The translations under genes and the position numbers were made by a program. Shown in pieces: positions 1 through 41,264 of a DNA stretch of 41,264 nucleotides. Position 1 is the first letter of the stretch; each line of letters begins with the position of its first letter. This DNA is from a virus: the IMG/VR virus record IMGVR_UViG_3300042309_000692, positions 1-41,264 of that record; one strand, given 5' to 3'. A model generated the notes under the pieces. It saw only the letters and a list, made by a program, of their open reading frames with translations, was not told the DNA's origin and made no database searches.

Positions 1-80
1 TCAAGGGTCTTGAGCGCGCTTGCGCTCATACGGTCGAGGCTGTGGTATTCAGCCTCCGGCATGTCCATCACAATCTTCAT
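1..80 (-). CDS. Duplicate 5' end of the RecE-like exonuclease (assembly overlap)
   Basis: Reading leftward from the ATG at 78-80, this is the first 26 codons of the same protein encoded at 40399-41217. It is truncated only because the window ends here. It is a copy made by the circular overlap, not a second gene or a pseudogene. Confidence 0.9.
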   Translation of the reverse strand, partial: MKIVMDMPEAEYHSLDRMSASALKTL

Positions 81-98
81 GGGTCAGTCTCCGGTTGT
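81..98 (-). promoter_or_regulatory. Ribosome-binding cassette of the RecE-like gene
   Basis: On the minus strand the bases before the ATG at 80 read CCGGAGACTGACCC. GGAG lies 8 bases from the start codon. The same wording precedes the ERF gene (40396-40408) and, as CCGGAGACCTGACC, most genes of the rightward block, so it looks like this phage's standard early translation-start cassette. Confidence 0.75.
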
Positions 99-99
99 G

Positions 100-116
100 G
101 CAAGCACCATGCTTGC
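100..116 (-). promoter_or_regulatory. Leader hairpin between promoter and RecE-like gene
   Basis: GCAAGCA (100-106) and TGCTTGC (110-116) form a perfect 7-bp stem with a 3-base loop. It sits in the short untranslated leader between the predicted transcription start (about 117) and the ribosome-binding site. It could tune mRNA stability or translation, or be a protein-binding palindrome. It is seen only as a sequence pattern. Confidence 0.45.
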
Positions 117-123
117 GAGTCGC

Positions 124-152
124 ACGATAGCGACCGTATCGACACACCGCAA
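124..152 (-). promoter_or_regulatory. Sigma-70-like promoter for the recombination genes
   Basis: On the minus strand a TTGCGG -35 element (plus 147-152) is followed, after exactly 17 bases, by a TATCGT -10 element (plus 124-129). Transcription would start near 117 and run into the RecE-like gene at 80 (= 41217). The element crosses the artificial contig junction at 127, so annotation tools treating the window as linear would see it only at this end. The rest of 81-287 holds no credible gene. Confidence 0.6.
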
Positions 153-2101: not shown

Positions 2102-5100
2102 CTAGGGAATTCTTGGGACCGTCCGTCGTGCTGCCTGTTCGCGAATGCGCTTGCGAATTTCATCTGGCGAGTAGCGCATGCGCAGACGATCGACGGCTTC
2201 TTGCACGGTGCGCTCATTGGCCTTCTTCTCTTCTGGAATCTGCTGCGCAACGAACCGATACAACTGGTACACGGGCACGCCGCGCAACTGGCCCAGCGCC
2301 AGCAATGCAGGCACGGCGTTGTAGTACCAGTCACGATCAGCCTGCATCTCACGCGCTGCCTGTTCGATCGGACGTACAACGATCGCCTGTCCCATCGCAC
2401 GGCGATTGACGATCGATTGCAGGGCAGTCGAGAATCCGAGCCCAACGTATCCGAACGTGGAGCCGATCAATTCGGCTGCAACCGATGCCGGGACAGACTT
2501 CACGGCTTCAGCGAATGCCTTGTCTTCCTCGTCGTCAGGCTCGTCTGCTCCGCCGAACAAGGCCGCGATGGTCTTGGCCATGTATGCAACCGTCGCGACC
2601 GACGCCACGCCGATGATCGTGCTGCTTGCGGTGTTGCCTGAAATGGCGAGAGTCGTTCCAATCCTTCGCTCGCCGGACAACCATGCCCGGCGGATCTGGT
2701 TGCGCGCCTTGAGCGGATCGCTGCTGAACACGAACAGCATGCGCCACGTTGCGCCGGACCCACGCACTCGATTGACCGCAGCGAATGCAGTCTCATCGAA
2801 TTCATCGCTGGCATTCTGGGTCAGCCGGAAGTCGCGCTCGGCCCGCTTGACTGCCTGCTCAAATGCATCGGTGCCAGTCAGGCCCTCGTCCTTCGCTTCT
2901 GCAAGGCGAGCCTCGACGGCGACCGACATGATGTGCTCATCCATCAGCCGCAGCATGTCAATGAGCGCGGTGAGCGTGAGGTTTGCGTTGTCGGTCGCAT
3001 CACCCAGCGCATTCAAACTATCGGTGATGTTCTTCGCAATGGCCGCATGCCCAGCGGATGCGAACGCACGCGCCATTCCCTTGGCTGCGGTCATCACCTT
3101 GACTCGATCGCCTGCCGACAACGTGCCGGACACGATGCCTCGCATCTGCATCTGGTGCCGTCGGGTGAAGTAGCCACTGGCAGAATGAATCTCGTCAACG
3201 CGAGCAGCCCATGCGCTGGGCGAGCGCAAACGGATGGCAGCACGCGACAATCCCTCGACCCAGTAGTTCCCGGGGATCTCGCTGCCAAGACGAATCGTTC
3301 CACCGACCACGACCTTCGCTGCCGTGCGCGGTGACAACGACAGAACCGCGCCCGTGACGTTGTTGGTCATCCGGTCAATGGCGTTCGTGGATGCACGGGC
3401 GGTCGCGCCGACGCCGTTGCTGAAGATCGCGAGGATCGCCTCCGCCGTGTTGCGTCCCATCTGCCGATCGATTGCAGCCACGATGTCGGGATCGGTGAGC
3501 ACGGTCGATGCATCGCGATAGGGCTGCGCCATGTGAATCATGTCCAGCGCAACATGCAGGTGCCGCTCCCACGTCTGGAATGCATCGCGATAGATCAGCG
3601 GCTGGCGTCCACCTTCACGGGCATTGGTGAACCCAACGCTGGTCAGCGCACTGCGAACCAACGACCCATGCTGGTTCAGCACGGACTTTGACTCGCCTTG
3701 GAATTCGTCCATGTTCCGGACGCGAGGCCAGTAGTTCGTGATCACAGGGGGCTGGTCGCCCTCGACAAGGAACACGGCTTCCATTGCACGGTCACGGATC
3801 TGCACCTCAAGCACGTCCTTCATCGCATCGATCAGGCCGCGCTGTCCCGCAGTCAGCCCAGCACGAATCGCCCGGATCTCCGCGTCCGTCGGGAATACAG
3901 TGAGGGTTGTCTCGGCACCCGCAAACTGCAAGCCCTGCTTTGCAGCATCCGGTGCCGTCGGTGGAATGAACAACTCCAGCGTCTCGTCATCCATTGCCGC
4001 GATGGACATGGCCAAACCAACTGGAATTGTCCGCGTCCGACCTTCCAGCACCACGTCCATGGTCTCTGCGATCGACGTTCCGTTGAGACCGTTGCGAAGT
4101 GCGTAGTCTTCGATGCCAGCGTAGCCCGCCGCACGAAGTGCAGTGCCGAGCGAATTGAGGATGCGCGCATGCTCAAGCCCAGCCTCGCCCTTCGCATCCT
4201 GTGCGCCGACGAGCATCTCGTTGATGACTCCGCCCATCGTGCCCTCGACCTCAAGCATCAGGGTGTAGATGTCCGAGTTGGCAATGGAAATGCGGCGCGC
4301 CAGCGACTGGCGAGGCGGAAGGTCCGCACGATCCCGCATCGGCAGCGTCTGCCGACCAATCATGGCGGTTGCAAGGCGGGTCTTCAGGTCGTTGTATCTG
4401 GCGACGCGCTGCTGCTGCCCGGCCACGAACGACGCCCGGTCCTGTTCGTACAGCAGCAACGCAGCCTGCACGTCATTTGCCGAATCCAAGACCTGCGCGT
4501 AGATGTTTACAGCGTTGACCACTGCCGAACCCATGCCCGGCACGGTAGCCACCGTTGCATAGATGCGACGGCGATTGGCCTGCCGGAGATTGGCGTCCGC
4601 CTTCGTCAGCAAACGCTCGATCGCCTGCCGCACGTCCCACCGCATTCCCCGCTTGTTCATGCGCTTGCGCAGCGCAGAGATCACCCGCAGTTGCTGGCGA
4701 ACTTCCTCATTGACGGCCAGTTTGGTTGCCTCGACGGCAATTCGATTGGCCTTTGCAATCGTCGTTGCGTTGGCGATTCGCGTGGCAAGCGGGCCGCGAA
4801 GATTGCGCGGAAGCATCATGGCCGCGTCCATGGCAATCCGCCGCGCTGCACGCTGCACTGCCAGCACGTTGCGTGACTTCTGGAGCATGGTCTTGATCGC
4901 GAAAATCTGGCGCTGAAGCGTGTCCTCACGCTGCTGCATCTTCTTCAGGATCTGCTGCCGACCACGCATCATTCCCTGCACTTGCCCAGCACGAAGACCC
5001 ATCTGGTGCGCAAAGTCGATTGCCCGAGCAGACGCCTTGGCATCAACCTTGATCCTGTGGGTCGCGGCGCGCAACGCAGACTCGGCCTGCGCAACGCGTG

Positions 5101-8100
5101 CTTCAAGCACCGCGACGCGTTCACGGAAAGGCTTGGCCGCGTTGCGTTCCTTCTGCATTCCAAACACCTGCCCGGCAACCAAGCCCTCGTTTCGTCCGAT
5201 GGCATACGCCCAGTTGGCAATGCGATCGACACGATCCTCCGCTTCTGCCAGTGCCTCAATTGCTTCCCGCGTCTCGGACTTGCGCTCACGCATCTCCTCG
5301 CGCAGGCGAACTACGCGAGCACGCGCCTTCTCCAGTTTCTTCGCAGCCACGCTTGCGGTTTCCGCTGCTGCAATCTTCTCGGCATCATTGATTGCCTTGA
5401 CTCGCTCAAGGCGGGTCTTCAACCTCTGCGCCTGCCCTTCCTTACGCGCCGCAATCAATTCCGCGAACGACAACCTGCGCTGCAAGACCCGCACTTCGCG
5501 CATTGCGTTTGTACGCTGCGCAGCAGTCGTGTTCTCAAGATCCCGCATCGTGCGCTGCATGTCGGAAATCTGTGACCGCAATGCGTCTCGCTCGGCGTCT
5601 GAAGCGTCGGGATCTCGCGCCATGCTTTCTGTTGCGCTTGGCCCAGCACCAACCGGGGTGGCAGTTCCGAACACCTGTTCAACGACCGACGTGCCCGGGA
5701 TCTTCACTAGTTTGGCGTAGTTGCCATATGCGGACGAACTTGGGCGTTCTTCATTCCGCATTGAAGCAATGAAGCCATCGTGCGCATTGATGAGGTATCC
5801 AATCAATCGAGCATCCGTATCACCAAGCACCCTTGAAAGCAACGGGTCTGGATTGGTATTTCTAGACACACGCATATATGCATCAACAAACCGTGGCAAC
5901 AGCGCAACATTGACTTCGCCGGACTGTTCGCGCTCGATCATTGCGGTGCGCAGCGCAGCAACACCAGCAGCGTATGCGTCCTGATTGGTCCGAAAATCAA
6001 GTGCTTCGTCAGGGATCAATTCGCGAATGCTGGATGGTGCAACTCGTCCGTCGCTTACGAGGGCGCGAATGCTTTCAAACGTCATCCTCTGCCACGTCGC
6101 AAACGTGTTCGTGGAATTTCGGAGTGCATCGAGCCGCTTCCCGGCATGCTCATAGATGCGCTCAAGCGGAATTTCCATCTTCCGAAGTGGTCTAAACAGG
6201 ATGTTCGCCAGTTCATTGGTGCCAGTCAGTCCAGACACGCCAATAAGCCAAGCGGCAACCGCACGAATGTGTTCCCGAAGATCACCGGGAACGTTGACAC
6301 GCGTTTCTTCCGGCTTGTCATACTCATCCGCAATAGCCTTGAAGAACGTGAGAACATCAGAAATGATGTCCTCATTCGTAGGCATGCTGAAATAATCAGA
6401 GTTGTATTCAACGAGCGTTCGCAGTTGATCAAACCACCATGGTCCCGATATCGCTGGCTTGGCACCACCTTGTGCTCGGTAACTTCCAGTTCCGCCAAGA
6501 TCGACATACAGCACGTTTCCAGTGTCTGGGTCAACAAGCGTGTTGTCGCCATCCATGCCAATCACATCCCAATTGCGTGACAGGGCATGCAGCACAATGT
6601 GTTCCTGCAAGTCGGCATATGCCTGTGATGCCTCAAACTCGCGCTGCCGCATCGCGTTCCGGAACTGCCCGATCGTTTGATACCCCTCGGCGTACCGAGT
6701 GATCAAAACCCGGTTGAGATCCGGTGTTCCAACCCGGACATCCATTCCATAGTCAGGAACAGGCAGTCCCAAGAACCGATACGCGTTGAAGTATTGCAGT
6801 TCGTTCCGACCGAAGTTCGCGTTGCCAAGATCGCCCTTTACAACCCATCGTTCACCCGTAGGCGCAGTCTGAAGCGTTGCTCCAGTGGATCCACCAAGTG
6901 GCGAACTACCAGATAGGGCCGCGAGCGGAGGAACATTCCCTGCTCGCATCTCCGCGAAGTCCATTTGCTCCAGCGTTTCACCAGTGAACGGGCTAATAAG
7001 GTTGCGGCGTCCGCTCACCACGATTTCATTGTGAACCCCAGCCTCGTCCTGCACGCCAATAAACTCAACAACGTCATACCCATTGGCAAGCGCGACTTTC
7101 TGCACCTCGTCCGTTGAAATCAGGCCACGAACACGATCTCGCACATCTGGCGGCAACTCCGATTCCGGAAGGTTGTCCCACATTTGCCCCAAGCAATCGA
7201 TCCGCAACGGGTTGTATGCGATGACGTAATACGCGTGAATGTATTTTCCGAAGACCTTGAGGTCGTCGGTGCTCACCGTTGACAGCGACAATCCGCGCAG
7301 CAACTTGTCCGTTTCCGACCGATATGGGGAGAACTTCACTGCGTCGGTTGCGTGATACAGCAATACGGGATTGGTTGGATTCGACGTTCCGATGAATCGG
7401 GCGTTGCCGGATACCACCAGCGCCTTGAGTTCGTCAGACGGTTCGCGTGCGAACGACTCAAGCGTAAACCCGCTTTCAGCGGCCCACCGAAGTTCTGCTT
7501 CGATTGCGGCCTTGGTCTTGCGGACCTCCGCATCCTGCGCCTCTTCGCGGGCAAAGGACTCGGATTGCGGCTCGGCAACAACACCAGCATCTGCACCATC
7601 CGCCACCGTGGCGTCGAGATCATTTTCCGCCAATGCGCTGCGCAACTGCGCCTGCGCCGATGACGTGCCGAGATCCACCGACATCGCCTCGCGCATTGCC
7701 ACTCGGTAGTCCTGCCCGACAGGATCATCTGCCGCGCCGAACATGGCGTACAACTCCTTCTCCACATACCACAGCGCGGCCTGCGCGTCTGCAACCTCAT
7801 ACTGCAAGCCAGTCTCGTTCTTGACAACATCAATCGCTTGCGTCAGAATCGACCGCATCTGCGTCCGAATGTAATTCGACTCTGGAGCCGCAGCCGACGC
7901 CGAAAGCGCCTTGGCATACCGCACAAGCGCAGCCTCAAGCGGGGACTTCTTCCGCAACTTCAGCGAGGTGCCAACCACCACGCGGTTGCGGACATCCTTT
8001 GCGAATTCGACGTCGAAGTTCGTCGCAACCTGATCGAGCAGCGCCGGGTTCTCCAACACGTTTGGCGGGATTCGACGCAATACCTGCTCTGCTTCGGCAA

Positions 8101-11100
8101 ACCCGACGGCATCAGGATTCCCTGCGGCAACGATTGCCCGAGCCTTCGCCAGTTCCTGCGCGACATCCGCAATGGCTGACCGAATGGCTGTGTCGTCTTG
8201 TCTTCGCAGCATGCCAAGCGGACGCATAAAGGTCCGCGTGAACCAGACATCTGCGGTCAGCGTGTCGAATCGCTTGTAGAGATTGTTGAAGAACGAGCCA
8301 ATCTTCGGCCCAAGAACGGATGACATGTACACGATGTCGTCAGCGGCATCGTTGATCAACACCACCTTTCCGTTCTCGGACAACAGGTTCATCTCGCGCA
8401 AGGTCTTGTTGTGCTGGCGCACCTTCGCCTTGGTCAACATGAACTTCTCGACAGCCTTCCATGAGCCGAGCGTCTCACGAAGGACGTTCAACTTGTTCAG
8501 GTTGCCGATCATCGGCCCAACGTGACGGGCATCGAACGACGGAGGAATCACGATGCGATCACGCCCGGCGCTCACCCACGCCTCATACAAGGCCCGGGTC
8601 AGTAGTGCGTTGTTCGACACCCGTTCGCCCTGCGACGTGATAGCCAGCATCAACGCAAAGACACGCCGATCGTCGCTCGTCTTCTTTGCCAACTCCGGGT
8701 ATCGGCGCGACGCTTCCGACCACATCTGGTCAACGAGGCGTCCATACCATTCCAGCGCCGAGGCCGACCCAGCCTTGGTGGCCGCATACTTGAGGTCGTC
8801 AGCAATGGATCGCACCATGATCTGCTCGACCTGCTTCGGAATCGGATTGGCCTGCGTGTATTCGGTGAGCCAGCCCATGATGGACTGGCTGAAGGAATCA
8901 AGCAGCACCTGAAGTTCACCAACCGTGTACTTCCGCGACCCGGCCATCCGATAGGACATGATGCCCTTGTCGGCCAGAATGTCTCCAAACGTGTTTGCCT
9001 TGGCATCGGCAAGCGCGCTAGTTGACTCCGCGAGATCCTCCTGCGCTTGCATCAGCGCCTGCACCAGAGGATCACCAGAAACCCATGAGGACACCTGCTG
9101 GTCAATGTCGCGGATTCGTTCCGTCAATGCAGCGATGCGATCCTTCGCATCGGCGGCGTTGGCAAGGCGGACCAGCCGAGCCTCTGCCGACTGATCCACG
9201 TCATCCTTTGCGTATGCGCCCTTCAGTTTGGAATACTGCCGCAACGACTCGCGCTTCGCAACAATGCGCGCACGTTCATTCGTGATTGCGACAATGGTGC
9301 CGATCTCTGCCGTCATGTACGACGCGGTCTCGGCCAACGACGCGATGTCACGACCCTGATTGAGTCGGACGATCGACGCTTGCGTCTGCGCAAGTTCGGC
9401 AGGCGATGCGTCCTTGCGCCGCAGTTCCGCACGAAGACGCTTGCGCTCCGCTTCGATGGCCTCCTGTGCTTCCGCAACAGCACGCTCGGATGAACGCACG
9501 CGAGCCATCGCGTCGGCAATCACCGGAATTGCAGCCATGCGCTCGGCTTCGGCTGCTTCAGGATCGACCTGCACAGCGGCGGGAAGCCACTGGCTTGCAG
9601 ACAGCAGGCGTCCCTTGCTGTCTGGTGTCAGCGTGTCTAACTCGCGCTTGAGAGCGAGCGTGAGTTTTACGAGAGAGATGCGTCGAGCACTGCCGACGAA
9701 GATGTCAGAATCTGCCGACGGGTTTCTGCGATCCCCCTGATCGTCGCGAGCACCTCCTGCCGCGTCCACTTGCTCCACACGCGGGCTGGGTCTGCCTTCT
9801 CCATCGACTGATACACCAACGACAGCATCGCGTTCGCCTCGTCCTGCCGCAATCCTTTCCAGTCGGCTGGGGTCAGCGGTGAAGCCCGCAAGGCCAGTGC
9901 TACGAATCCGCTCTCGTTCGGATTCAGAGAGGTTGAGTTTTGCGAACCAGACTCCGGGGTAATTCGTGACTCGTCCATTTGCATCTGTCTCCGGTACCCA
10001 GCCTTCTGACTTCCAGTACTTGGAAAGCAGGTCGATGTATTCATCCAGCGTCATGCCGGATGGAGGGGTCAAATACTGCGGATCAAACTGCGCATACCCG
10101 TTGGGCATCGCCTGCTCGTCCGCCACGAATCCGAACATGCGATACGCAGTCGGCAACTTGCCGTTCTGCTCTGCCTGCCCGGGCCGACGCACATCGTAGC
10201 AATCGCACCTCATCTCGGTGTTCGGATACCGAGAGATTGCGTGCAACATCACTGGAGCAATCACGTCGGTGATATCGGTCTCATTGCTGTAAAGACCGAC
10301 AGCCTCGTCGTATCCGCCGATGCGCTTGCCTTCAGAATCCAAAGACTCCACGCGCTTGATCATGTACGCCACGTCAAGCCCGGGAATCCCATAAGGCTCG
10401 TAGGACGTGCGCGTCGTCCCCGTTTCGTTCGTTTCGATTGTCGGATTGGCAATCTGATCGAGCGTGTACTGGGTCAGCGTCTGCGTAGCCTTGTTTCGCT
10501 TGTGGCCTTGCAGGTATTCGCTCGGCGTGAGCGGACGGAAATTCAGCGTCGCCATCGACGCCGCTGCCGCCATGAAACGGCGGGCCATGTCAAGCCGTGC
10601 ACCCTCGCGCATGTTCGGCTGGCCAACCAACGCCTCGCGCAACTTTGCTACTGCTGTGGACTTCTGAATATCGCCCACCTGCGCCTTGCGCGCTGCCGCT
10701 TCGGCCTTCTCGCGCTTGGTCGCAATGACCTTCCCGACTCGTTCCGCCGCCTGCTTGGCAACGAACTTTCTTGCCGTCTCAATATCACGTGCGAAGTTCA
10801 CATCCATGTTGCCAGCCCACAGCAACGTGCGGGCAAGTGGCGACAGTGAGGGATCCTGCACCTTCGGGCCAACGACGTTGGACACCGCCGCCGCCCGGGC
10901 AACGGTTTCAAATACCGCCATCGCCGCCATGGCCTCGCGGCCTAGGAACCCCCGTGCGGCGGCAAATGCCACCGCCGGGCCGAAGATGCCGCCACGGGTA
11001 GCCGCCGCTGCCGCTGCAAAGGCGTTGGCTGCGCCCTCCTGCTCCAGACGGGCCGCGCCCGCCCGGGCGACCCCCGGGGCAAGCGGAGCCTGCTGGACGC

Positions 11101-13231
11101 CCTCCAGCGCCCCCAGAGCGGCCCCAGCCTGCTCCATGGCCGCGAGGTCCATCCGACCCGTAGCAGCCGATTCTGGAGCCCCACGCCCAGCGTATTCGAC
11201 CCCAGCCGCGTAGATCGGGGCAAGCCCCGCCCGCTCCATGAATACCTCGGCCAACTCCGGCTGGAACATCTGAATATCGTGGAAGACCTCCTCAAGCGCG
11301 GAAGCCATGATCCGATCAGGCTTTGCGTCTGCGTTCAGGTACACCACTCCACGGCTCCGCATCGAGTGAAACGCTGGGTTGAACTTGCCGGACGGGCGGA
11401 ACCACACCACCTTCCGCCCCAAAGCCTCGATCTGCTTTTGGACACGCTTGCCAGACTTCGGGGCCGTGGTTTCGGTCATGGTCATTCCAGCCCGGGTGCC
11501 CATGCCACTCAAGACGGTGGCCGGATCTGCCTGCTCCATGACCGCAGGCATCTCGCTGATCTTCTCCGCCACCGCATTGTGGATGGCCGAAGCCATCAGC
11601 CGATCGGTGACAGCCGAGCCGATCGAAGCATCAATGCGTGCGATGTCGTCCTTGATGTCCTGAATCGCCTGCGCGTCCATGGCGTCCATGGCACCAGCAA
11701 GACCAATGTCCAGCCGCTGGCGCTCGTCCAGCATCGACTCGACCTCGGTCTGGATATCAGCCTGCCGCTGCGCAAGATCAGCAAGGAACACGCCTCGCTG
11801 CTGCTGGTCCATCCCGTTCAGGCTGTCCAGCGCACTGGACACGCTGGCAATCTGCGTCTGGTCAAGACCGTCCTGCCAGTTTACCCGACGCTTCAGCGCC
11901 TCGCCATGAATGGTCCGCAATGCGCGTTCATGGTCCGTTTCGGGCCGCATGGCTTCGCGGCGATTCATCATCGCACGGTTGCCAGATACTGCAAGCACAG
12001 ATCCAGTTCCGCCGATTCCACCCGCGATGGTTCCGATGAACGCCCCGTACACACCGTCAGCCAAATCCTTTGACAGCGGTGCTGCCGTGAACGGAGCCAT
12101 CAGCGCAGCGGTGATTCCCTCTTCCGCGCCCTCCTCAAGTCCAGACACGCCAATGATTCCGGACGCACGGCCAAGCCACCCGTTCCTGAACGAGGCAGTC
12201 CCGTTGGAAATTCTGGCAAACGTATCAAGACCCTTCTGGCCAGCCTTGGACTGCAACGCCTTGTTGACAATCGGCGCGCCGCGCTCGATGAACGGACGCA
12301 ATGCCGCCTTGCCAACCTTGGTCTTGAGCCCAACACCCGCAATCTTCGCGAGCGCCTTGCCACCGATTGCAGCGCCACCAGCCTCCACTCCAGCCTCAAT
12401 GACGGCGCGTGCTTCGGCTCGCGTTCTGGATTCCTGAAGCGAGTACTCCGTCAGCGGACGCCCCTCGATTGCGTCATCCGCTCGCTGCTGGTCAACCTCG
12501 TCCATGGCTTCAATAAAGCCGGACGAATATGACGTGAATGGAATCATCGCCGTGCTGATAATGCCTGCCGCAACTGGGACATTTCCCGTGGCCAGCGCAC
12601 CAGCAACGCCAATCATCTGCGGGACATTCTGCCCAACCGCACGCGCTACGTCCGGAATCACGCCCTCCGGGGCACCGCGCATCATGCCTTCCTGCGCGCC
12701 ACGAATGGCAATCAATTCAGACCGCAGATCCTCAACAGTGAGCCCGGACTTCTCTGGCTCGACAGCCATGGACAGTTTGTCTGCAACTGCCTGATTGACA
12801 AGGTTTTGCGTTGCAGGATCTACATCGGAGAACCACGACGCGATGTACTCGATCGGTCGCATGACCGACCGAATGAACTGCCCTCGCATGCCCGGAGTGG
12901 CGATGGTCTGCGCAGCCTGTTCAGCGGTCATCCGCAGCCCACGCTCAATTTCGCGCAGTGGCAGAATCCCACCAGCCCCCGTCATTCCAATTCCACCCTC
13001 TGGCGTAACCAGCAGGTCTTCGTACTGCTTGGCAGCACCTTCCAACAGATCCGCCTCGCCGGGTGCCGTGCCCGGCGTGGCACCGGGCGCTTCCGACAAT
13101 TGCGTCTGAACGATCGAGTCGATCGCGTCCTGAAAGGACATTTGCGGTGCGGACTGCGGACGCATAGGTTCCGCGCCCGGCTGCACGGACATGCGCAGCG
13201 CCTCGTCGATCGCCTTCTGGAAATTGGACAT
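2102..13231 (-). CDS. Giant polyvalent virion/ejection protein (3709 residues)
   Basis: This single uninterrupted gene is 11.1 kb. Visible segments are: hydrophobic Gly-rich stretches (about 194-240 and 390-417); a metallopeptidase-like region (about 584-760) whose HExxH site reads EEVFH (647-651), lacking the first His; an acetyltransferase-like region (about 900-1105, with MRCDCYD and LPTAYRMFGF); coiled coil (about 1223-1420); a conserved helical region (about 1477-1672); an ADP-ribosyltransferase-like domain (about 1950-2085: YHAT with H1960, LSLST, NEIVV with E2069); a protein-kinase-like domain (about 2110-2310: K2132, NWD with D2222, N2230, DLGG with D2244); long coiled coil (about 2515-2890); a region with NYWPRV (about 3163); and a membrane segment (about 3530-3557). 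This layout matches injected polyvalent proteins of phages. It follows the nozzle and ejection genes and is last in its operon. It is probably packaged and ejected with the DNA. The ORF and size are certain; domain calls are by motif only. Confidence 0.8.
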   Translation of the reverse strand: MSNFQKAIDEALRMSVQPGAEPMRPQSAPQMSFQDAIDSIVQTQLSEAPGATPGTAPGEADLLEGAAKQYEDLLVTPEGGIGMTGAGGILPLREIERGLRMTAEQAAQTIATPGMRGQFIRSVMRPIEYIASWFSDVDPATQNLVNQAVADKLSMAVEPEKSGLTVEDLRSELIAIRGAQEGMMRGAPEGVIPDVARAVGQNVPQMIGVAGALATGNVPVAAGIISTAMIPFTSYSSGFIEAMDEVDQQRADDAIEGRPLTEYSLQESRTRAEARAVIEAGVEAGGAAIGGKALAKIAGVGLKTKVGKAALRPFIERGAPIVNKALQSKAGQKGLDTFARISNGTASFRNGWLGRASGIIGVSGLEEGAEEGITAALMAPFTAAPLSKDLADGVYGAFIGTIAGGIGGTGSVLAVSGNRAMMNRREAMRPETDHERALRTIHGEALKRRVNWQDGLDQTQIASVSSALDSLNGMDQQQRGVFLADLAQRQADIQTEVESMLDERQRLDIGLAGAMDAMDAQAIQDIKDDIARIDASIGSAVTDRLMASAIHNAVAEKISEMPAVMEQADPATVLSGMGTRAGMTMTETTAPKSGKRVQKQIEALGRKVVWFRPSGKFNPAFHSMRSRGVVYLNADAKPDRIMASALEEVFHDIQMFQPELAEVFMERAGLAPIYAAGVEYAGRGAPESAATGRMDLAAMEQAGAALGALEGVQQAPLAPGVARAGAARLEQEGAANAFAAAAAATRGGIFGPAVAFAAARGFLGREAMAAMAVFETVARAAAVSNVVGPKVQDPSLSPLARTLLWAGNMDVNFARDIETARKFVAKQAAERVGKVIATKREKAEAAARKAQVGDIQKSTAVAKLREALVGQPNMREGARLDMARRFMAAAASMATLNFRPLTPSEYLQGHKRNKATQTLTQYTLDQIANPTIETNETGTTRTSYEPYGIPGLDVAYMIKRVESLDSEGKRIGGYDEAVGLYSNETDITDVIAPVMLHAISRYPNTEMRCDCYDVRRPGQAEQNGKLPTAYRMFGFVADEQAMPNGYAQFDPQYLTPPSGMTLDEYIDLLSKYWKSEGWVPETDANGRVTNYPGVWFAKLNLSESERERIRSTGLAGFTADPSRLERIAAGRGERDAVVGVSVDGEGRPSPRVEQVDAAGGARDDQGDRRNPSADSDIFVGSARRISLVKLTLALKRELDTLTPDSKGRLLSASQWLPAAVQVDPEAAEAERMAAIPVIADAMARVRSSERAVAEAQEAIEAERKRLRAELRRKDASPAELAQTQASIVRLNQGRDIASLAETASYMTAEIGTIVAITNERARIVAKRESLRQYSKLKGAYAKDDVDQSAEARLVRLANAADAKDRIAALTERIRDIDQQVSSWVSGDPLVQALMQAQEDLAESTSALADAKANTFGDILADKGIMSYRMAGSRKYTVGELQVLLDSFSQSIMGWLTEYTQANPIPKQVEQIMVRSIADDLKYAATKAGSASALEWYGRLVDQMWSEASRRYPELAKKTSDDRRVFALMLAITSQGERVSNNALLTRALYEAWVSAGRDRIVIPPSFDARHVGPMIGNLNKLNVLRETLGSWKAVEKFMLTKAKVRQHNKTLREMNLLSENGKVVLINDAADDIVYMSSVLGPKIGSFFNNLYKRFDTLTADVWFTRTFMRPLGMLRRQDDTAIRSAIADVAQELAKARAIVAAGNPDAVGFAEAEQVLRRIPPNVLENPALLDQVATNFDVEFAKDVRNRVVVGTSLKLRKKSPLEAALVRYAKALSASAAAPESNYIRTQMRSILTQAIDVVKNETGLQYEVADAQAALWYVEKELYAMFGAADDPVGQDYRVAMREAMSVDLGTSSAQAQLRSALAENDLDATVADGADAGVVAEPQSESFAREEAQDAEVRKTKAAIEAELRWAAESGFTLESFAREPSDELKALVVSGNARFIGTSNPTNPVLLYHATDAVKFSPYRSETDKLLRGLSLSTVSTDDLKVFGKYIHAYYVIAYNPLRIDCLGQMWDNLPESELPPDVRDRVRGLISTDEVQKVALANGYDVVEFIGVQDEAGVHNEIVVSGRRNLISPFTGETLEQMDFAEMRAGNVPPLAALSGSSPLGGSTGATLQTAPTGERWVVKGDLGNANFGRNELQYFNAYRFLGLPVPDYGMDVRVGTPDLNRVLITRYAEGYQTIGQFRNAMRQREFEASQAYADLQEHIVLHALSRNWDVIGMDGDNTLVDPDTGNVLYVDLGGTGSYRAQGGAKPAISGPWWFDQLRTLVEYNSDYFSMPTNEDIISDVLTFFKAIADEYDKPEETRVNVPGDLREHIRAVAAWLIGVSGLTGTNELANILFRPLRKMEIPLERIYEHAGKRLDALRNSTNTFATWQRMTFESIRALVSDGRVAPSSIRELIPDEALDFRTNQDAYAAGVAALRTAMIEREQSGEVNVALLPRFVDAYMRVSRNTNPDPLLSRVLGDTDARLIGYLINAHDGFIASMRNEERPSSSAYGNYAKLVKIPGTSVVEQVFGTATPVGAGPSATESMARDPDASDAERDALRSQISDMQRTMRDLENTTAAQRTNAMREVRVLQRRLSFAELIAARKEGQAQRLKTRLERVKAINDAEKIAAAETASVAAKKLEKARARVVRLREEMRERKSETREAIEALAEAEDRVDRIANWAYAIGRNEGLVAGQVFGMQKERNAAKPFRERVAVLEARVAQAESALRAATHRIKVDAKASARAIDFAHQMGLRAGQVQGMMRGRQQILKKMQQREDTLQRQIFAIKTMLQKSRNVLAVQRAARRIAMDAAMMLPRNLRGPLATRIANATTIAKANRIAVEATKLAVNEEVRQQLRVISALRKRMNKRGMRWDVRQAIERLLTKADANLRQANRRRIYATVATVPGMGSAVVNAVNIYAQVLDSANDVQAALLLYEQDRASFVAGQQQRVARYNDLKTRLATAMIGRQTLPMRDRADLPPRQSLARRISIANSDIYTLMLEVEGTMGGVINEMLVGAQDAKGEAGLEHARILNSLGTALRAAGYAGIEDYALRNGLNGTSIAETMDVVLEGRTRTIPVGLAMSIAAMDDETLELFIPPTAPDAAKQGLQFAGAETTLTVFPTDAEIRAIRAGLTAGQRGLIDAMKDVLEVQIRDRAMEAVFLVEGDQPPVITNYWPRVRNMDEFQGESKSVLNQHGSLVRSALTSVGFTNAREGGRQPLIYRDAFQTWERHLHVALDMIHMAQPYRDASTVLTDPDIVAAIDRQMGRNTAEAILAIFSNGVGATARASTNAIDRMTNNVTGAVLSLSPRTAAKVVVGGTIRLGSEIPGNYWVEGLSRAAIRLRSPSAWAARVDEIHSASGYFTRRHQMQMRGIVSGTLSAGDRVKVMTAAKGMARAFASAGHAAIAKNITDSLNALGDATDNANLTLTALIDMLRLMDEHIMSVAVEARLAEAKDEGLTGTDAFEQAVKRAERDFRLTQNASDEFDETAFAAVNRVRGSGATWRMLFVFSSDPLKARNQIRRAWLSGERRIGTTLAISGNTASSTIIGVASVATVAYMAKTIAALFGGADEPDDEEDKAFAEAVKSVPASVAAELIGSTFGYVGLGFSTALQSIVNRRAMGQAIVVRPIEQAAREMQADRDWYYNAVPALLALGQLRGVPVYQLYRFVAQQIPEEKKANERTVQEAVDRLRMRYSPDEIRKRIREQAARRTVPRIP

Positions 13232-16069: not shown

Positions 16070-18258
16070 TAGTACGTTCCCTTCACGTTCTTCGTGTGCG
16101 GCATGGCGTCAAGCAACACGGACATCCGCTCAAGCGCCCACGGTACACCGTTGCTTTCCAGACGCACATAGGCCGCTTGCTCACGGATTCTGCACCTCAA
16201 GGCATCATTCCGGCCCGGGACAAGCGCCCCCAGTTGCGTCTGTGTTGCGCTGTCATACACAGCAGCCCCGACAAGAAACCGTGGGGCCACAATGTCCGAC
16301 GGGAGCAAGAACCCCGAAATTCGTTGTTCCGAGCGATAAAGATAGGTACCAGCCGGAGTGGTCGCTCCAGTGTTGGAGAAAGTTTCGTCCCGCTGGAACA
16401 TCCGACTTGTAGATCCGACTGTTGGCAAGTGCTCCAAGTACCAGTTGGTACCCGGGGGCGCAGTGCCTGTATTTCGCACCCTGTTTCGACCACGCGTATA
16501 GATCCGCGCCGTGGGGTCCGTGATCAACGAATCCGCTGTCGTATATGTGCCCGGGATGGCAGTTTCAAACAACAGATCCAAGGCGCGGTCGGTCCCCGTG
16601 TTCCATGCGGTGTTTGGAGCGCCGCCGTCATACGTCGCCGTCGGGCTAAACGCGGTTTCGTTTCCGGCATCGACCACATACTGCGGATACAGCGGGTCAA
16701 ACTGCACGGTTACCGATGCGACATTCGATCCAATTGCCTCTTCCGCAGTCTGGCCAGAAAGCACCGTTGCAAATGGACCAGTCAACTGGTCAATCGGCGT
16801 GCTGAATGCCGCATCCTCGATGGGTGCATCCATGGACAATTCGATGCGAACATCGCGCATCATCACTTGCCCAAGGCTTGGCTCAACAACTGGTCCGAGC
16901 GTGATTGAACTTGCAATTCGGCGCGTGGCGGCAAGCGCGTTGTCTACAACAAATTCCGCAGCCGCACCCTTGAATCCGACAGCAGCCTGACCATCCACGC
17001 CAGATACAAGATCCCTATCGAACCACGCCAGATACCCATTGGTGCTTCCAAATGCAACCAGCGGCGATCTTGCGTCACCGAACGGAAACTCGCCGCATAC
17101 GCTCGGAGCGGCAAATGAGGTCCATCCAGTTTTCCACGGCCAGAACGAATCGGTCGTCTGGTTGTAGACCAAGTGAGTGCTTGAGGTCGGCTGATCGGTG
17201 CGGGAAAGCACGACATACACATTCTGCGCCTCTGCATCGAATCCCAAGGAACAGCGGATGTTGTCGAATGCTTGCTGCTGGAAGAACGTGTCAAGTCGGC
17301 CACTCGTCACTCTTGCAGACTGCGTGATCTGAAAGTCGTTGGGGCGGACCCGATACATCCCATCCTGTGCAAGCAGGTACATCGTCTGCGAATCGCTCGG
17401 GCACCATGCCGTCGGGCTGACAATGCCAACCGATCGAGACAACTCGATGATTCTGGCGTCCGGAAGCACAGGATCGCTGGTGAGATACGTGATCGAGTGC
17501 CGTCCAGCAAACATCAAGCCAGACTCACCGACAGGAATCAGTGCAACGATTGGTTCTCCCGGAATACCAAACCGCTCGCTTTGCGTTCCAGCAACCGCGT
17601 GCTCTGGATTGTTCCCGAATGCTGAGGGATCCCAGTCGTCTGGGTCATTCAGTTTGGAAAGAAACCACGTATTCGGAGCATCCACCAATCCAGACAGAGC
17701 CAGACGACCGCCAAACCTCACAAGCAATGACGCATACTTGAAGTTGGGATTGGAACCTGTTCTGACATGCGCATATGGCGTATGCGTGCCACTCCAGTTC
17801 ACGACATTCGGGGTCGCCTGCGTGATGTCAACCTTGTAGTAGTGCGTACCATCCGCGAAATAACAGAACTGCCCGAAGACAGCAGCCCCAATATGGCCTG
17901 TCGTCCGAAGCGGGTTGGTCGTGCCTGCGCCAGAGCGCGGGCAGTGCACCTTTGCACCCGCATTGTCGATGAGGTACACCTCACCGCCAGCAACAACGAT
18001 GCATCGCTGCGTCAATGTGCCAGCCACATACGCGTCGGCGCGCAAGACCACCTGCACCTCGCGTGTCGCAGCCGTTGGGACATCGTTGAACGTGTACGCA
18101 CCAAGCAGCGGCCTGCGCTTTCCAATACGCAACTTTCCCTTGAATGCGTCGTATGGAACTACGTTCAGGCTCTCGGCAGTAAAGCCACTCGGCAGTGCCG
18201 AGTATGCGGCATCGACGCTGATTCCGCGATAAGGAATTGCGACCGATGCGTATGGCAT
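16069..18258 (-). CDS. Tail nozzle / stabilisation protein (beta-propeller-like)
   Basis: This 729-residue protein is rich in beta strands. Repeated blade-like blocks include ESGLMFAGRHSITYLT, MYLLAQDGMYRV and VYVVLSRTD, and the sentence-like segment GIVSPTAWCPSD lies between blades. This layout is typical of podovirus nozzle proteins (T7 gp12-like) and P22 gp10-like stabilisation proteins, which attach below the connector and carry the receptor-binding fibres. The fibre gene lies directly upstream with a TAATG junction and a connector candidate is encoded at 23078. Its exact family is uncertain, but a virion tail component is well supported. Confidence 0.65.
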   Translation of the reverse strand: MPYASVAIPYRGISVDAAYSALPSGFTAESLNVVPYDAFKGKLRIGKRRPLLGAYTFNDVPTAATREVQVVLRADAYVAGTLTQRCIVVAGGEVYLIDNAGAKVHCPRSGAGTTNPLRTTGHIGAAVFGQFCYFADGTHYYKVDITQATPNVVNWSGTHTPYAHVRTGSNPNFKYASLLVRFGGRLALSGLVDAPNTWFLSKLNDPDDWDPSAFGNNPEHAVAGTQSERFGIPGEPIVALIPVGESGLMFAGRHSITYLTSDPVLPDARIIELSRSVGIVSPTAWCPSDSQTMYLLAQDGMYRVRPNDFQITQSARVTSGRLDTFFQQQAFDNIRCSLGFDAEAQNVYVVLSRTDQPTSSTHLVYNQTTDSFWPWKTGWTSFAAPSVCGEFPFGDARSPLVAFGSTNGYLAWFDRDLVSGVDGQAAVGFKGAAAEFVVDNALAATRRIASSITLGPVVEPSLGQVMMRDVRIELSMDAPIEDAAFSTPIDQLTGPFATVLSGQTAEEAIGSNVASVTVQFDPLYPQYVVDAGNETAFSPTATYDGGAPNTAWNTGTDRALDLLFETAIPGTYTTADSLITDPTARIYTRGRNRVRNTGTAPPGTNWYLEHLPTVGSTSRMFQRDETFSNTGATTPAGTYLYRSEQRISGFLLPSDIVAPRFLVGAAVYDSATQTQLGALVPGRNDALRCRIREQAAYVRLESNGVPWALERMSVLLDAMPHTKNVKGTY

Positions 18259-19553
18259 TATTCAAGAGTCCAATACTGAATTACCACCGCTCCACCGACG
18301 CCGCCCGAGGCAGAACCGGGGCCTTCGGGTGCCCCGGCTTGTCCGGCTTTCAATGATCCCGTTGCACTCCACGGAACCGCCGGAAGACTTTGATTTGCAT
18401 TCCATCCCTCTCTGTCTACGGGAGGCTCAAGAAGATGCGAACCCCAAATATTTGCAAATTGTCGAGTGCTCCCAGCAGGAGCAGAACCAACAGTAGACCC
18501 TGCACGGTTAGGAACAGTGCCGCCTACCGTTGCTCCACCATTTGCCGTTAGTCCAAATGCACTACTAGCCGTAGCAGCAGCCGGATTGGTTGTATTACTT
18601 CCCGCACTACCAGCACCTACGGTGATTGTGAATGTTGTTCCCGGAACTACAGTGAAGTGCCCCGTAATGCAACCGCCGGGCTGTCCGTAAACAGTGACAG
18701 GCGGATTTACAATTAGGCTAGTATAACCACCACCCTGACCACCCCCAACAACCGTTACGATCACTCCAAGACACCGTGCAGGAGCCGTCCACGTTCCTGA
18801 CGCTGCAAATGCCACAATGTTTGTTTTTACTCCGATGCCTGTCGCAAGCCGATCGAGAGCAACAGTATTGTTAGCAATCTTGGCATTGACAATTGCGCCG
18901 TCGCGAATGTGATTCGTTGTGACCGCCCGATTGGCGTCCGTTGATGGGTCGTCCCGCAATTTGCCTGCGGTCACTGCGTCATCAGCGATCTTTGCAGTCG
19001 TGACCGCGACATCGCGAATGTGATCCGTCGTGACCGCACGATTTCCATCAGTCACTGCGTCATCGCGCAATTTGTCTGCGGTTACCGCGTCGTCAGCAAG
19101 TTGTGATGTCCCAATAGATCCATCATGCTGCGACAACGCAACCCATGTCGTATAGGCTGTCCCATCCCATCCGCGTGAGAACACGCGCTGGGTCTTGGTC
19201 GAAAACAACACTTGGGCCACGCTGCCAGTGGCAATGCGGGTCACCAGCAGGATCCCCGGGGCGTCGGACGCAGGAGTCCAGCCAGATGGGACATTCGTCA
19301 CTACCGACGCAGCAATCTCAAATCGCCCCTGCTGCACGTATGCAGCGGCATTCAAGTCATTGCCAGCGCCGGAAATCTGCGCGTATGCAGCGCGTGCATA
19401 TGGAAGCGAATTCCACGCCAGCGTCCCGTCGCCAATCTTGAAGTTGCCAGTATCGGTTTCAAGCCCGATCTCACCAGCCAGCAACACTGGGTTGTTGGAT
19501 GGGTTTGCCCAGTCAGCGGCAAGGCCACGGCGGATCTGCAACTTGATTGCCAT
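18258..19553 (-). CDS. Tail fibre / receptor-binding protein
   Basis: This 431-residue protein has three parts. Residues 1-55 (LQIRRG...AGEIGLETDTGNFKIGDG) match the virion-attachment domain seen at the start of many phage fibres and of the Mtd tropism determinant. Residues about 145-225 are tandem fibre repeats of the D-A-V-T-x-x-K-L/I type, present as two 37-residue units. Residues about 255-431 are a glycine-rich tip ending GGAVVIQYWTLE, like Gly-rich adhesin tips with polyglycine loops. It should bind the host surface from the nozzle. The tip is likely the host-range determinant. No chaperone or cleavage domain is visible. Confidence 0.85.
   Translation of the reverse strand: MAIKLQIRRGLAADWANPSNNPVLLAGEIGLETDTGNFKIGDGTLAWNSLPYARAAYAQISGAGNDLNAAAYVQQGRFEIAASVVTNVPSGWTPASDAPGILLVTRIATGSVAQVLFSTKTQRVFSRGWDGTAYTTWVALSQHDGSIGTSQLADDAVTADKLRDDAVTDGNRAVTTDHIRDVAVTTAKIADDAVTAGKLRDDPSTDANRAVTTNHIRDGAIVNAKIANNTVALDRLATGIGVKTNIVAFAASGTWTAPARCLGVIVTVVGGGQGGGYTSLIVNPPVTVYGQPGGCITGHFTVVPGTTFTITVGAGSAGSNTTNPAAATASSAFGLTANGGATVGGTVPNRAGSTVGSAPAGSTRQFANIWGSHLLEPPVDREGWNANQSLPAVPWSATGSLKAGQAGAPEGPGSASGGVGGAVVIQYWTLE
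18902..19123 (-). repeat. Tandem 111-bp repeat in the fibre shaft
   Basis: Two imperfect 111-bp units (18902-19012 and from 19013) are aligned by the shared string CGCGAATGTGAT. They encode the 37-residue fibre-shaft unit (DHIRD...AKIADDAVTAGKLRDD). Unit number in such genes changes by recombination and alters shaft length. Confidence 0.7.
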
Positions 19554-23841: not shown

Positions 23842-24318
23842 TCAGGCGAGCGCGAGGCTTCCATCAAGCAGAATCTGGACGGACGTGACCGCACCACCGC
23901 TGCTGGTGAGCACGACGCCGATCTTTGCCGCCGGGCTTGAGTTGGTGGCCGTGGCGGCGGTGCCGCTCGGACCAACCGCCTGACCAGCGGTGTACGTCGC
24001 GGACGCACACTTGACGTTCGTCACGCCGCAGACCATGATGTCCGCCTGCTGCCCAGCAGCAGCAGCCGTCTGCGCCACTCCATAGATGCCTCCGGCACTG
24101 TCACCAGTGAACGGACCAATGGCAACATTGGCAAACTTGGAGTTGGTCGTCGCGTTGAACGCAGCATCGCCCTGACCGGGAATGGACGATGCCTGCGACA
24201 GATCGAACCGAACGAGATCACCGACCGAGACGCTGCTGACGCACCGTGCCTTGACGATGACCGGGCGCGGCTGGATGCCGATGGTGCCCTGCGAAAGAGC
24301 CGAAAGAAGAACTGACAT
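23842..24318 (-). CDS. Putative capsid decoration / stabilisation protein
   Basis: This 158-residue beta-rich protein, Ala/Gly/Thr/Ser-rich, has no enzyme motif and is encoded directly after the major capsid gene, as decoration or head-stabilising proteins usually are. VGDLVRFDLSQASSIPGQG (about 32-50) and VTSVQILLDGSLALA (C-terminus) are distinctive. The same full-length domain is fused to the N-terminus of the SGNH-like protein at 20354-23065. It is flanked on both sides by strong RNA hairpins, which fits a product needed in large amounts. The decoration role is inferred from position and composition. Confidence 0.65.
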   Translation of the reverse strand: MSVLLSALSQGTIGIQPRPVIVKARCVSSVSVGDLVRFDLSQASSIPGQGDAAFNATTNSKFANVAIGPFTGDSAGGIYGVAQTAAAAGQQADIMVCGVTNVKCASATYTAGQAVGPSGTAATATNSSPAAKIGVVLTSSGGAVTSVQILLDGSLALA

Positions 24319-24375: not shown

Positions 24376-25662
24376 TCAGGCGGTGCGAAGCGGGGCGATG
24401 ATGCCGTGACGCTGGCGGCTGTTGCAGAACAGGTTCCACCAGCAGTCAACGGGCTGCACCCACGTGAACGGCTGATTGGGGTGACGCATCACGTCGTGCT
24501 TCTTCATGTACCGAGTCGTGTGGTACACGGGCGTGAGGTACGTGCCGTTCACGAAGTAGAAGCGGGGACCCTTGTCGATGGTCGTACCGCCGAACTCCGT
24601 GCCAGCAGCAGTGGTGACGAGCGTCGCACCGTCGCGACCAGCCTCGTCATCAGCCACCGAAGCGTTACCGATCGGGTAGATCGCAGCGTTATCAAGATTC
24701 GCGCAGTACTCGACCGGGATGCCCGAGAACGTCGGGGTGTTGTATGCGCTGTCCTGCGCGCTGACCAGCATGTCGTTCGATGCACGCAGAGCACGCTTAT
24801 AGAGGTTGACGCCCGACTTGGACGACAGAATCATCTGCCGCTGGTAGTTCGTCTCCTCAAAGTACTGACGCTGCGTCAGCGGGGCGCTGAACTTGCACTT
24901 GAAGAACATGTCGTCGAACGCGCCGAAGAAACTGTACACCTCGCGGGCGATCGAGTTGGCATTGTGGTTGGTGTATGCACCAGCCGCCTTGACAACCGAA
25001 GCGCCGTTGTAGGTCGGAGTAGCCGCATACGTCGCGGTCGTGTTGTAGAACGCGATCTGGTTGGACCACCGCTCATCGACCGTCGGGTCGATTCCGAGCA
25101 CGGAAGTCCAGCCAGTGGGACGGCCACCGCGCTCTCCGAGCGTGGTGACGGAGTTCACGTTTTCGGTGATGAACACGGGGAGCGAGAACGGCTCCTTGCC
25201 GTTCGTGCCTTCCATGTTGGCCGAATTCGCAACAGGGCTCTGCCACAGGTCGTCTTCCATGCCGTTCAGCATGGAGGTCCACATGCGCATTTCCTTGATG
25301 CGCTTGAGGCGCTTGTACACCACCTTGGCATCGCCGTCGTTCAGTTCGACTTCCTGATCGGTCCACGACATGTAATCCATGCTGAAGCGCCACGGGGCGG
25401 TCAGCGTGTCGGTGACCTGCGGATTCGACCACGTGAACGTGTCGTTCGGCTGGTACTTCTGGTAGGTGCTGCTATCGGTGAAGACGATCACGTCCTTGAT
25501 GGACGTGCCGCCCTGAACCAGCGTCTCGCTGGCCTTCTCCTTGAGCATGCGGGAAAGGACGTAGTTGTTCTTGACCGCCTCGTTGATGACGGCCTCTGCG
25601 GACTTCAGGTATGCAGGGCCAGTGCTCTGCATGAAGTCATTGAACTGGGTAATCGAAGGCAT
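24376..25662 (-). CDS. Major capsid protein
   Basis: This 428-residue protein lies directly downstream of the scaffold gene. Its start (FNDFMQSTGPAYLKSAEAVINEAVKNN), a long helical segment after about residue 105 (VYKRLKRIKEMRMWTSMLNGMEDDLW is split by the spine helix), a beta-rich domain and an aromatic-rich C-terminus (KHDVMRHPNQPFTW) are like HK97-fold capsid proteins of podovirus-type phages. It forms the icosahedral shell. No protease gene is seen nearby, and no obvious N-terminal delta domain, so maturation is probably scaffold-driven. Confidence 0.85.
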   Translation of the reverse strand: MPSITQFNDFMQSTGPAYLKSAEAVINEAVKNNYVLSRMLKEKASETLVQGGTSIKDVIVFTDSSTYQKYQPNDTFTWSNPQVTDTLTAPWRFSMDYMSWTDQEVELNDGDAKVVYKRLKRIKEMRMWTSMLNGMEDDLWQSPVANSANMEGTNGKEPFSLPVFITENVNSVTTLGERGGRPTGWTSVLGIDPTVDERWSNQIAFYNTTATYAATPTYNGASVVKAAGAYTNHNANSIAREVYSFFGAFDDMFFKCKFSAPLTQRQYFEETNYQRQMILSSKSGVNLYKRALRASNDMLVSAQDSAYNTPTFSGIPVEYCANLDNAAIYPIGNASVADDEAGRDGATLVTTAAGTEFGGTTIDKGPRFYFVNGTYLTPVYHTTRYMKKHDVMRHPNQPFTWVQPVDCWWNLFCNSRQRHGIIAPLRTA

Positions 25663-25672
25663 GGTGCCTCAC

Positions 25673-26571: not shown

Positions 26572-26874
26572 TCAGTCCTCTGCTCGGATGTAGCCATGAC
26601 GAGCCGCAACATTGCGCTCTTCACGGCGACTTGAAATGATCGGGTTGCCAGCAGCATCGCACGTCACGCCCGGAAGATTCTTCGGAAGTGCATGGCTGAC
26701 ATAGGGATACGTGCTGGTGGTGAAGTTCGGGCTGACCTGCGTGGCGCTTGCGATTCGCGTCACAGGCCCGAACATCGGGTGTTCGTAGATGGCACCAATC
26801 GTCGGTGCTTCGCTCATGGCGAACACGCACTCGATGATCTGGCCTTCTGCTGTCTGAAATTCGTATGCTGGCAT
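26572..26874 (-). CDS. Small FmdB-like protein lacking zinc cysteines
   Basis: In this 100-residue protein the start MPAYEFQTAEGQIIE parallels FmdB-type zinc-ribbon proteins (MPxYEYxCxxCG), but the cysteines are replaced. Later segments (VTRIASATQVSPNF) are strand-like and the C-terminus is basic (SSRREERNVAARHGY). Similar small genes sit between portal and scaffold in other phages. The start overlaps the portal stop (TAATG). Possibly a minor head protein or regulator; function unknown. Confidence 0.6.
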   Translation of the reverse strand: MPAYEFQTAEGQIIECVFAMSEAPTIGAIYEHPMFGPVTRIASATQVSPNFTTSTYPYVSHALPKNLPGVTCDAAGNPIISSRREERNVAARHGYIRAED

Positions 26875-41217: not shown

Positions 41218-41264
41218 GGGTCAGTCTCCGGTTGTGGCAAGCACCATGCTTGCGAGTCGCACGA
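41138..41264. repeat. Right copy of 127-bp exact terminal repeat (circular contig overlap)
   Basis: This is the second copy of bases 1-127. It holds the start codon and first 26 codons of the RecE-like exonuclease, its ribosome-binding site, a leader hairpin and the first four bases of the -10 element. The remainder of that promoter lies at 128-152 at the other end of the window. Confidence 0.93.

What the first reader, a model, noticed from the sequence alone, without database searches (positions are those of the whole stretch)
6270..7385. Adjacent ADP-ribosyltransferase-like and protein-kinase-like domains in the giant protein
Residues about 1950-2085 show YHAT (H1960), LSLST and NEIVV (E2069), spaced like the H-S-E/Y-E core of ARTs of the polyvalent type. 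Only about 60 residues later, K2132, NWD with D2222, N2230 and DLGG (D2244) match the Lys / catalytic Asp / Asn / Asp-Gly positions of HipA- and effector-type kinases, including a D-x7-N-x13-D spacing. Two different nucleotide-using modifiers in tandem suggest a dual covalent attack on host targets.
Basis: partly seen in the sequence, partly recalled or inferred. Interest (0 to 1): 0.85.

Follow-up and report, generated by a model that had tools for sequence, protein, structure and literature searches.

The report
Paired ART and kinase phage effector module
A giant protein, probably carried in the virus particle, of an uncultivated bacterial virus contains, side by side, a likely ADP-ribosyltransferase and a well-supported kinase from a widespread but unnamed family, suggesting that the virus injects two different protein-modifying enzymes into its host.

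Summary
The window is an end-closed (127-bp terminal repeat) 41-kb phage genome. All named motifs lie in a 3709-aa ORF (2102-13231, minus). The kinase-like part (aa 2105-2335) is a real protein-kinase-fold domain. K2132, D2222, D2229, N2230 and D2244 are invariant and E2144 at least 90% conserved in 62 homologues. AlphaFold is confident over the core, and all 50 listed PDB matches (67 at E<=1e-3) are kinase-fold enzymes. It belongs to a large phage family absent from Pfam, PHROGs, NCBIfam and PADLOC. That family is distinct from Kinase-PolyVal and related to HipA in the N-lobe. Relatives are fused to MuF or portal domains, and at least 13 of 38 also carry an ART. The ART part (aa 1950-2088) fails plain HMM tests. 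However, profile-profile comparison singles it out from 238 segments (P about 1e-4 to 4e-5) as a divergent ART-PolyVal domain with H and E kept and Tyr replaced by Ser. Its fold could not be predicted. Against a close relative the module is a divergence hotspot (dS 0.9 versus 0.11) with catalytic residues intact, which suggests allele exchange. Most likely this is an ejected dual-modifier effector. Catalysis, targets and ejection are inferred.

The parts
2102..13231 (-). ORF of the giant protein, 3709 aa, probable internal/ejected virion protein
   Evidence: last gene of the structural block (terminase, portal-like, head, tail fibre); podoviral relatives share aa 1463-1841 and gene order
6968..7384 (-). 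ART-PolyVal-like domain, aa 1950-2088
   Evidence: hhalign scan of 238 segments, P 1.1e-4 local and 3.6e-5 global, collinear over profile 4-135; alignment A7
7352..7354 (-). H1960 (YHAT), equivalent to YHGT His of ART-PolyVal
7286..7288 (-). S1982 (GLSLST), in the place of the Tyr of GVYLT
   Evidence: residue position inferred from that alignment; conserved in L002
7025..7027 (-). E2069 (NEIVV), equivalent to catalytic Glu of (R)EIVVF
6227..6919 (-). Kinase domain, about aa 2105-2335 (extends about 40 bases beyond the finding's coordinates)
   Evidence: AlphaFold2 pLDDT >90 over most of the core; all 50 listed PDB Foldseek hits are kinase-fold enzymes
6836..6838 (-). K2132, beta-3 lysine
   Evidence: Invariant in 62 sequences
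6800..6802 (-). E2144, helix-C glutamate
   Evidence: >=90% conserved; lies in predicted helix 2138-2153
6566..6574 (-). NWD 2220-2222, catalytic loop with catalytic Asp D2222
   Evidence: D2222 invariant
6542..6547 (-). D2229-N2230, metal-binding Asn of catalytic loop
   Evidence: Invariant
6491..6502 (-). DLGG 2244-2247, DFG-equivalent
   Evidence: D2244, G2246, G2247 invariant
5972..7474 (-). Divergence hotspot aa 1920-2420, covering the ART and kinase
   Evidence: 77% aa identity (ART) and 68% (after kinase core) to L002 versus 98-99% in the rest of the protein; dS 0.90 (ART) versus 0.11-0.15

Best explanation
The region is a two-enzyme effector module inside a giant podovirus-type virion protein: a divergent ART-PolyVal ADP-ribosyltransferase (aa 1950-2088) followed about 20 residues later by a compact, HipA-related kinase of an unnamed phage family (aa 2105-2335). 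Inferred mechanism: the giant protein is packaged in the particle and ejected with the DNA. In the cytoplasm the ART uses NAD and the kinase uses ATP to modify host proteins early in infection (host takeover or blocking of defence). The module sits in a conserved carrier and is exchanged between related phages as a variable cassette. Shown here: the motifs, kinase fold prediction and conservation, profile-level ART similarity, recurrent ART-kinase fusion to head proteins, and the local divergence. Inferred: catalysis, substrates, ejection, exchange and cooperation of the two domains.
For: Kinase: invariant K/D/D/N/D and nearly invariant helix-C E in 62 homologues; AlphaFold2 pLDDT >90 with the strand/helix order of a kinase; 67 PDB matches at E<=1e-3, the 50 listed all kinase-fold enzymes, best 6dfl WaaP 9.8e-5; best viral matches include a portal fusion (9.5e-13), GodonK and a protein named ADP ribosyltransferase (1.4e-8). 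ART: top 12 of 238 segments all overlap it; H and E aligned to YHGT and EIVVF; giant proteins of related 39-kb podoviruses carry PF18760. Tandem recurs: PF03496 in 13 of 38 kinase relatives, Phage_Mu_F in 13, portal in 3; L036 has MuF, ART-PolyVal-like, then kinase in the same order, L091 has kinase then ART-PolyVal; Mecenats66 and Touem01 proteins have the kinase plus PF03496. Delivery: the Yersinia phage fHe-Yen8-01 relative with this kinase domain is annotated 'ADP-ribosyltransferase toxin', 'phage particle associated protein'; a LIMEstone1 ART-PolyVal relative is a 'confirmed structural protein'. Catalytic residues are kept in the divergent L002 allele.
Against: The ART does not reach Pfam, and a family HMM scores it no better than shuffled sequence. 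Its structure model is poor (pLDDT 51.5) and matches nothing. The ART-PolyVal Tyr is Ser here. No activity, target or virion proteomics for this phage. Podoviral relatives DC33, ctEw122 and ctQRb9 have the ART but no kinase, so the pairing is not required by the carrier. ART and kinase could act independently.
Confidence: 0.62

Rival explanations
1. Only the kinase is a functional enzyme; the ART-like segment is a degenerate relic or a different small fold that happens to keep YHAT and NEIVV.
For: Plain HMM tests fail; no confident model; Tyr of the H-Y-E triad is Ser; ART segment is highly divergent from L002.
Against: Full-length collinear profile match found only at this segment; H and E kept in a 77%-identical allele with dN/dS 0.19, i.e. 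under purifying selection; ART-PolyVal present in sister giant proteins.
Confidence: 0.25
2. The kinase-fold domain is not a protein kinase acting on host proteins but does other chemistry or phosphorylates a small molecule, or acts on the ART or virion protein itself as a regulator or timer.
For: Top Foldseek hits spread over protein, lipid and sugar kinases (WaaP, PAK, PI3K, PI4KII, mTOR), so the fold does not tell the substrate; NUDIX domains also occur in 5 of 38 relatives; the catalytic loop is unusual (D-x7-N).
Against: All canonical phosphotransfer residues are invariant or nearly so; the N-lobe resembles HipA, a protein kinase (no other kinase profile was compared this way); the kinase also occurs without the ART (most of the 38 relatives lack a detectable ART).
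Confidence: 0.3
3. The domains are structural spacers of the ejection protein with no role as effectors.
For: The carrier is a giant virion-type protein encoded with head and tail genes.
Against: Catalytic residues are invariant across hosts and carriers (MuF, portal, podoviral giant protein); the module diverges while the carrier does not.
Confidence: 0.07

Closest known systems
Polyvalent proteins of phages and conjugative elements (Iyer et al. 2017, PMC5512222), ART-PolyVal PF18760
   Same: Giant multidomain protein with ART-like and kinase domains in the virion gene block; related 39-kb podoviruses carry PF18760 in the same kind of protein
   Different: ART too divergent for Pfam; kinase is not the Kinase-PolyVal family described there
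Kinase-PolyVal (PF18762)
   Same: Kinase domain in polyvalent phage proteins
   Different: No match in the 10 kinase cores at E<=10 or 38 full-length relatives at E<=1e-3; described as having a His-Asp insert and no C-terminal subdomain, whereas this family has NWD, no conserved His, and about 70-90 helical residues after the DxGG motif
HipA kinases (PF07804)
   Same: N-lobe profile match (Lys, helix-C Glu, G-V-x-V-P), P 5.8e-5, reversed profile 0.47; 2 of 38 relatives match HipA_C (best 1.5e-4)
   Different: Catalytic loop NWD-x7-N versus N-x-DDH-x2-N; window itself not matched
T4 Alt and MuF-fused ARTs (phage head toxins)
   Same: Head-delivered ART idea; relatives match Alt-like PHROGs and MuF
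   Different: Those C-terminal ARTs are the exoenzyme (PF03496) type; here ART-PolyVal type and a kinase in one module

Membership tests
Protein-kinase-like fold | Beta-3 Lys, helix-C Glu, catalytic Asp/Asn, DFG-type Asp | tested here: met
   K2132, D2222, N2230, D2244 invariant, E2144 >=90% in 62 sequences
Protein-kinase-like fold | Bilobal kinase fold | tested here: met
   Predicted structure pLDDT >90 and PDB matches to kinases at E about 1e-4, though TM-scores are modest (0.2-0.26 by query, 0.06-0.46 by target)
HipA (PF07804) | HipA_C profile match | tested here: not met
   Window no match; 2 of 38 relatives weakly
HipA (PF07804) | HipA N-lobe pattern | tested here: met
   hhalign P 5.8e-5; best of 30 column shuffles 0.07
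Kinase-PolyVal (PF18762) | Profile match | tested here: not met
   No match; none in the L002 record
ART-PolyVal (PF18760) | Pfam cut-off score | tested here: not met
ART-PolyVal (PF18760) | Collinear profile-profile similarity | tested here: met
   P 1.1e-4 / 3.6e-5, unique among 238 segments
ART-PolyVal (PF18760) | His and Glu of the H-Y-E triad | tested here: met
   H1960 and E2069 aligned
ART-PolyVal (PF18760) | Tyr of the H-Y-E triad | tested here: not met
   Ser at this position in window and L002; L091 has Phe
ART-PolyVal (PF18760) | ART split beta-sandwich fold | tested here: inconclusive
   Model pLDDT 51.5, no Foldseek match
Polyvalent protein | Large multidomain protein encoded with virion genes | tested here: met
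   Gene context and relatives
Polyvalent protein | Packaged and injected into host | not testable with these tools
   Only by analogy: relatives annotated as particle-associated or structural

The most novel reading that the evidence does not exclude
The kinase is the window's member of an uncatalogued, HipA-related family of phage head-delivered kinases that is repeatedly and independently paired with ADP-ribosyltransferases (exoenzyme type or PolyVal type, either order), so that phages deliver paired phosphorylation and ADP-ribosylation as one host-takeover strategy, with the pair exchanged as an allelic cassette.
Probability: 0.4. Interest if true: 0.75.

Novelty: new variant of a known kind. 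Interest (0 to 1): 0.56.

Why it matters
Phage-delivered ARTs are known, but a broad family of head-fused kinases with no name in Pfam, PHROGs, NCBIfam or PADLOC, often joined to an ART, points to a common and untested layer of early host takeover. The module is small, separable and has clear catalytic residues, so its targets can be found by standard phosphoproteomics and ADP-ribose labelling.

Tried and rejected
Pfam, PHROGs, NCBIfam and PADLOC scans gave no name for the kinase family, and Pfam and PHROGs none for either window domain. HMM of 29 ART-PolyVal domains against the window: E 1.5, inside shuffles, replaced by the more sensitive profile-profile scan. First pairwise hhalign of the ART with L091 and L036 was weak (P 0.012-0.015). 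PDB sequence searches found nothing meaningful for either domain. ART structure with 8 aligned rows was poor. ART relatives by single-query scans were only the three near-identical contigs or the query itself. PF18760 in 398 genomes: none, with an uninformative control. A regex for exoenzyme-type ARTs was too strict to count fusions, so Pfam counts are used. Literature searches found no description of this kinase family, within an open-access library only.

Full report
What was checked. The window is an IMG/VR virus record whose ends share a 127-bp direct repeat, consistent with an assembly closed into a circle of about 41.1 kb. The finding lies in a 3709-aa ORF on the minus strand, 2102-13231. 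The same strand also encodes a terminase large subunit (29689-31941), a portal-like protein (26874-28643), a head decoration protein (23842-24318), a major head protein (24376-25662) and a tail-fibre protein (18258-19553). So the giant protein belongs to the virion gene block.

The kinase. A tblastn search of phage records matched mainly the second half of the region. A 10-sequence core alignment then found at least 404 relatives in viral contigs, the list being cut at its limit. In 62 aligned sequences K2132, D2222, D2229, N2230, D2244, two glycines of DLGG and R2252 are invariant and E2144 is at least 90% conserved. AlphaFold2 models most of aa 2100-2330 with pLDDT above 90, in the order beta1-beta2-beta3(Lys)-alphaC(Glu)-beta4-beta5-helix-catalytic loop-beta7-beta8-DxGG-helical C-lobe. 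Foldseek against the PDB gives 67 matches at E<=1e-3; the 50 listed are all kinase-fold enzymes (WaaP, PAK1, PI3K, mTOR, PI4KII), with modest TM-scores because the query also holds the poorly modelled ART. The closest viral models include a portal fusion, Gordonia phage GodonK, and a Caudovirales protein named ADP ribosyltransferase. The family has no Pfam, PHROGs, NCBIfam or PADLOC model that names it. It is not Kinase-PolyVal. Its N-lobe is HipA-like by profile comparison (P 5.8e-5; reversed profile 0.47, best of 30 column shuffles 0.07), but the catalytic loop NWD-x7-DN differs from HipA NxDDHxxN. Relatives occur in genomes of Pseudomonas, Endozoicomonas, actinobacteria, Nostoc, Verrucomicrobiota and others.

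The ART. Neither Pfam nor a custom HMM of 29 ART-PolyVal domains recognises aa 1950-2088. Related giant proteins of Limnohabitans phage DC33 and two 39-kb podoviruses share aa 1463-1841 and carry clear PF18760 ART-PolyVal domains (E 1e-19 to 1e-22), though no kinase. With a profile of such ARTs, hhalign was run over 238 overlapping segments of the giant protein. The 12 best segments all overlap this region, with P 1.1e-4 (local) and 3.6e-5 (global) and collinear coverage of nearly the whole profile. H1960 falls on the His of YHGT and E2069 on the Glu of EIVVF; the Tyr of GVYLT is Ser here. A dedicated AlphaFold run gave pLDDT 51.5 and no fold match. I therefore call it a probable, divergent ART-PolyVal domain.

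Is the tandem meaningful? Among 38 diverse full-length relatives of the kinase, 13 carry the exoenzyme-type ART PF03496, 13 a Phage_Mu_F domain, 3 a portal domain, 5 a NUDIX domain; SPP1 gp7-type minor capsid matches occur in 16. L036 has MuF, an ART-PolyVal-like stretch and the kinase in the window's order about 30 residues apart, although its PF18760 score is below cut-off and its His is not kept; L091 has kinase then ART-PolyVal. Named phages Mecenats66 and Touem01 have the kinase plus PF03496, and the Jeremy and ST4 relatives are annotated ADP-ribosyltransferase. The Yersinia fHe-Yen8-01 protein is annotated as an ADP-ribosyltransferase toxin and 'phage particle associated'. So ART and kinase are combined repeatedly, in different carriers and orders. 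No background rate of ARTs in other head proteins was measured.

Divergence. Compared with the near-identical protein L002, aa 1-1925 are 98.8% and aa 2380-3709 98.1% identical, but the ART is 77% and aa 2261-2370 68%. dS is 0.90 in the ART and 0.61 in the C-lobe against 0.11-0.15 elsewhere; dN/dS is 0.19-0.37 against 0.05-0.07. High dS points to replacement by a divergent allele. All key residues are identical in both alleles. Over the parts of the genome that could be compared with the L004 contig (about 13.2-23 kb of the window was not covered), a stronger drop covers the major head protein and upstream (24.4-26.4 kb, 68-83%). This rests on one pair of lineages and no recombination test was run.

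Interpretation. The best reading is a packaged and ejected effector module using NAD and ATP to modify host proteins, within the polyvalent-protein theme described in PMC5512222 and the virion-packaged ART theme of PMC9503650. New here are the unnamed kinase family, its repeated pairing with ARTs, and the local allele divergence in one lineage. Catalysis, targets, packaging and cooperation of the two domains remain inferred.

Noticed in passing
window 1-127 and 41138-41264: Exact 127-bp direct terminal repeat; L002 and L004 run through the junction, so the record is a closed circular assembly of about 41,137 bp.
   Followed up: yes
window 24401-26500: Second divergence hotspot against the L004 contig (68-83% nt identity) over the major head protein and the upstream gene, in an otherwise about 95% identical genome.
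   Followed up: partly
window aa 930-1120 of the giant ORF (about nt 9872-10444, minus): Stretch 'NTEMRCDCYDVRRPG...AYRMFGFVADEQAMPNGYAQFD' looks like the GNAT-type domain of polyvalent proteins; no Pfam match, unverified.
   Followed up: no
window about aa 600-690 of the giant ORF: 'ALEEVFHDIQ' resembles a metallopeptidase HExxH site that has lost its first His; unverified.
   Followed up: no
window aa 1463-1841 of the giant ORF: Domain shared at 27% identity with giant proteins of Limnohabitans phage DC33 and podoviruses ctEw122 and ctQRb9; no Pfam name. DC33 is filed under Inoviridae in its record although its size and genes are podovirus-like.
   Followed up: partly
A4, the 38 full-length kinase relatives (e.g. 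L014, L017): NUDIX domains occur in 5 of 38 kinase-bearing phage proteins, beside ARTs in 13, hinting at a wider NAD/ADP-ribose link.
   Followed up: no
L108, L109, L132, L134 (Pseudomonas syringae group chromosomes): 560-773-aa ORFs in bacterial chromosomes with the same kinase domain; whether prophage or cellular was not examined.
   Followed up: no
L144 3904-6624: A 907-aa protein with two kinase copies in tandem, the second with degenerate catalytic residues (NWN, GNHGS).
   Followed up: no
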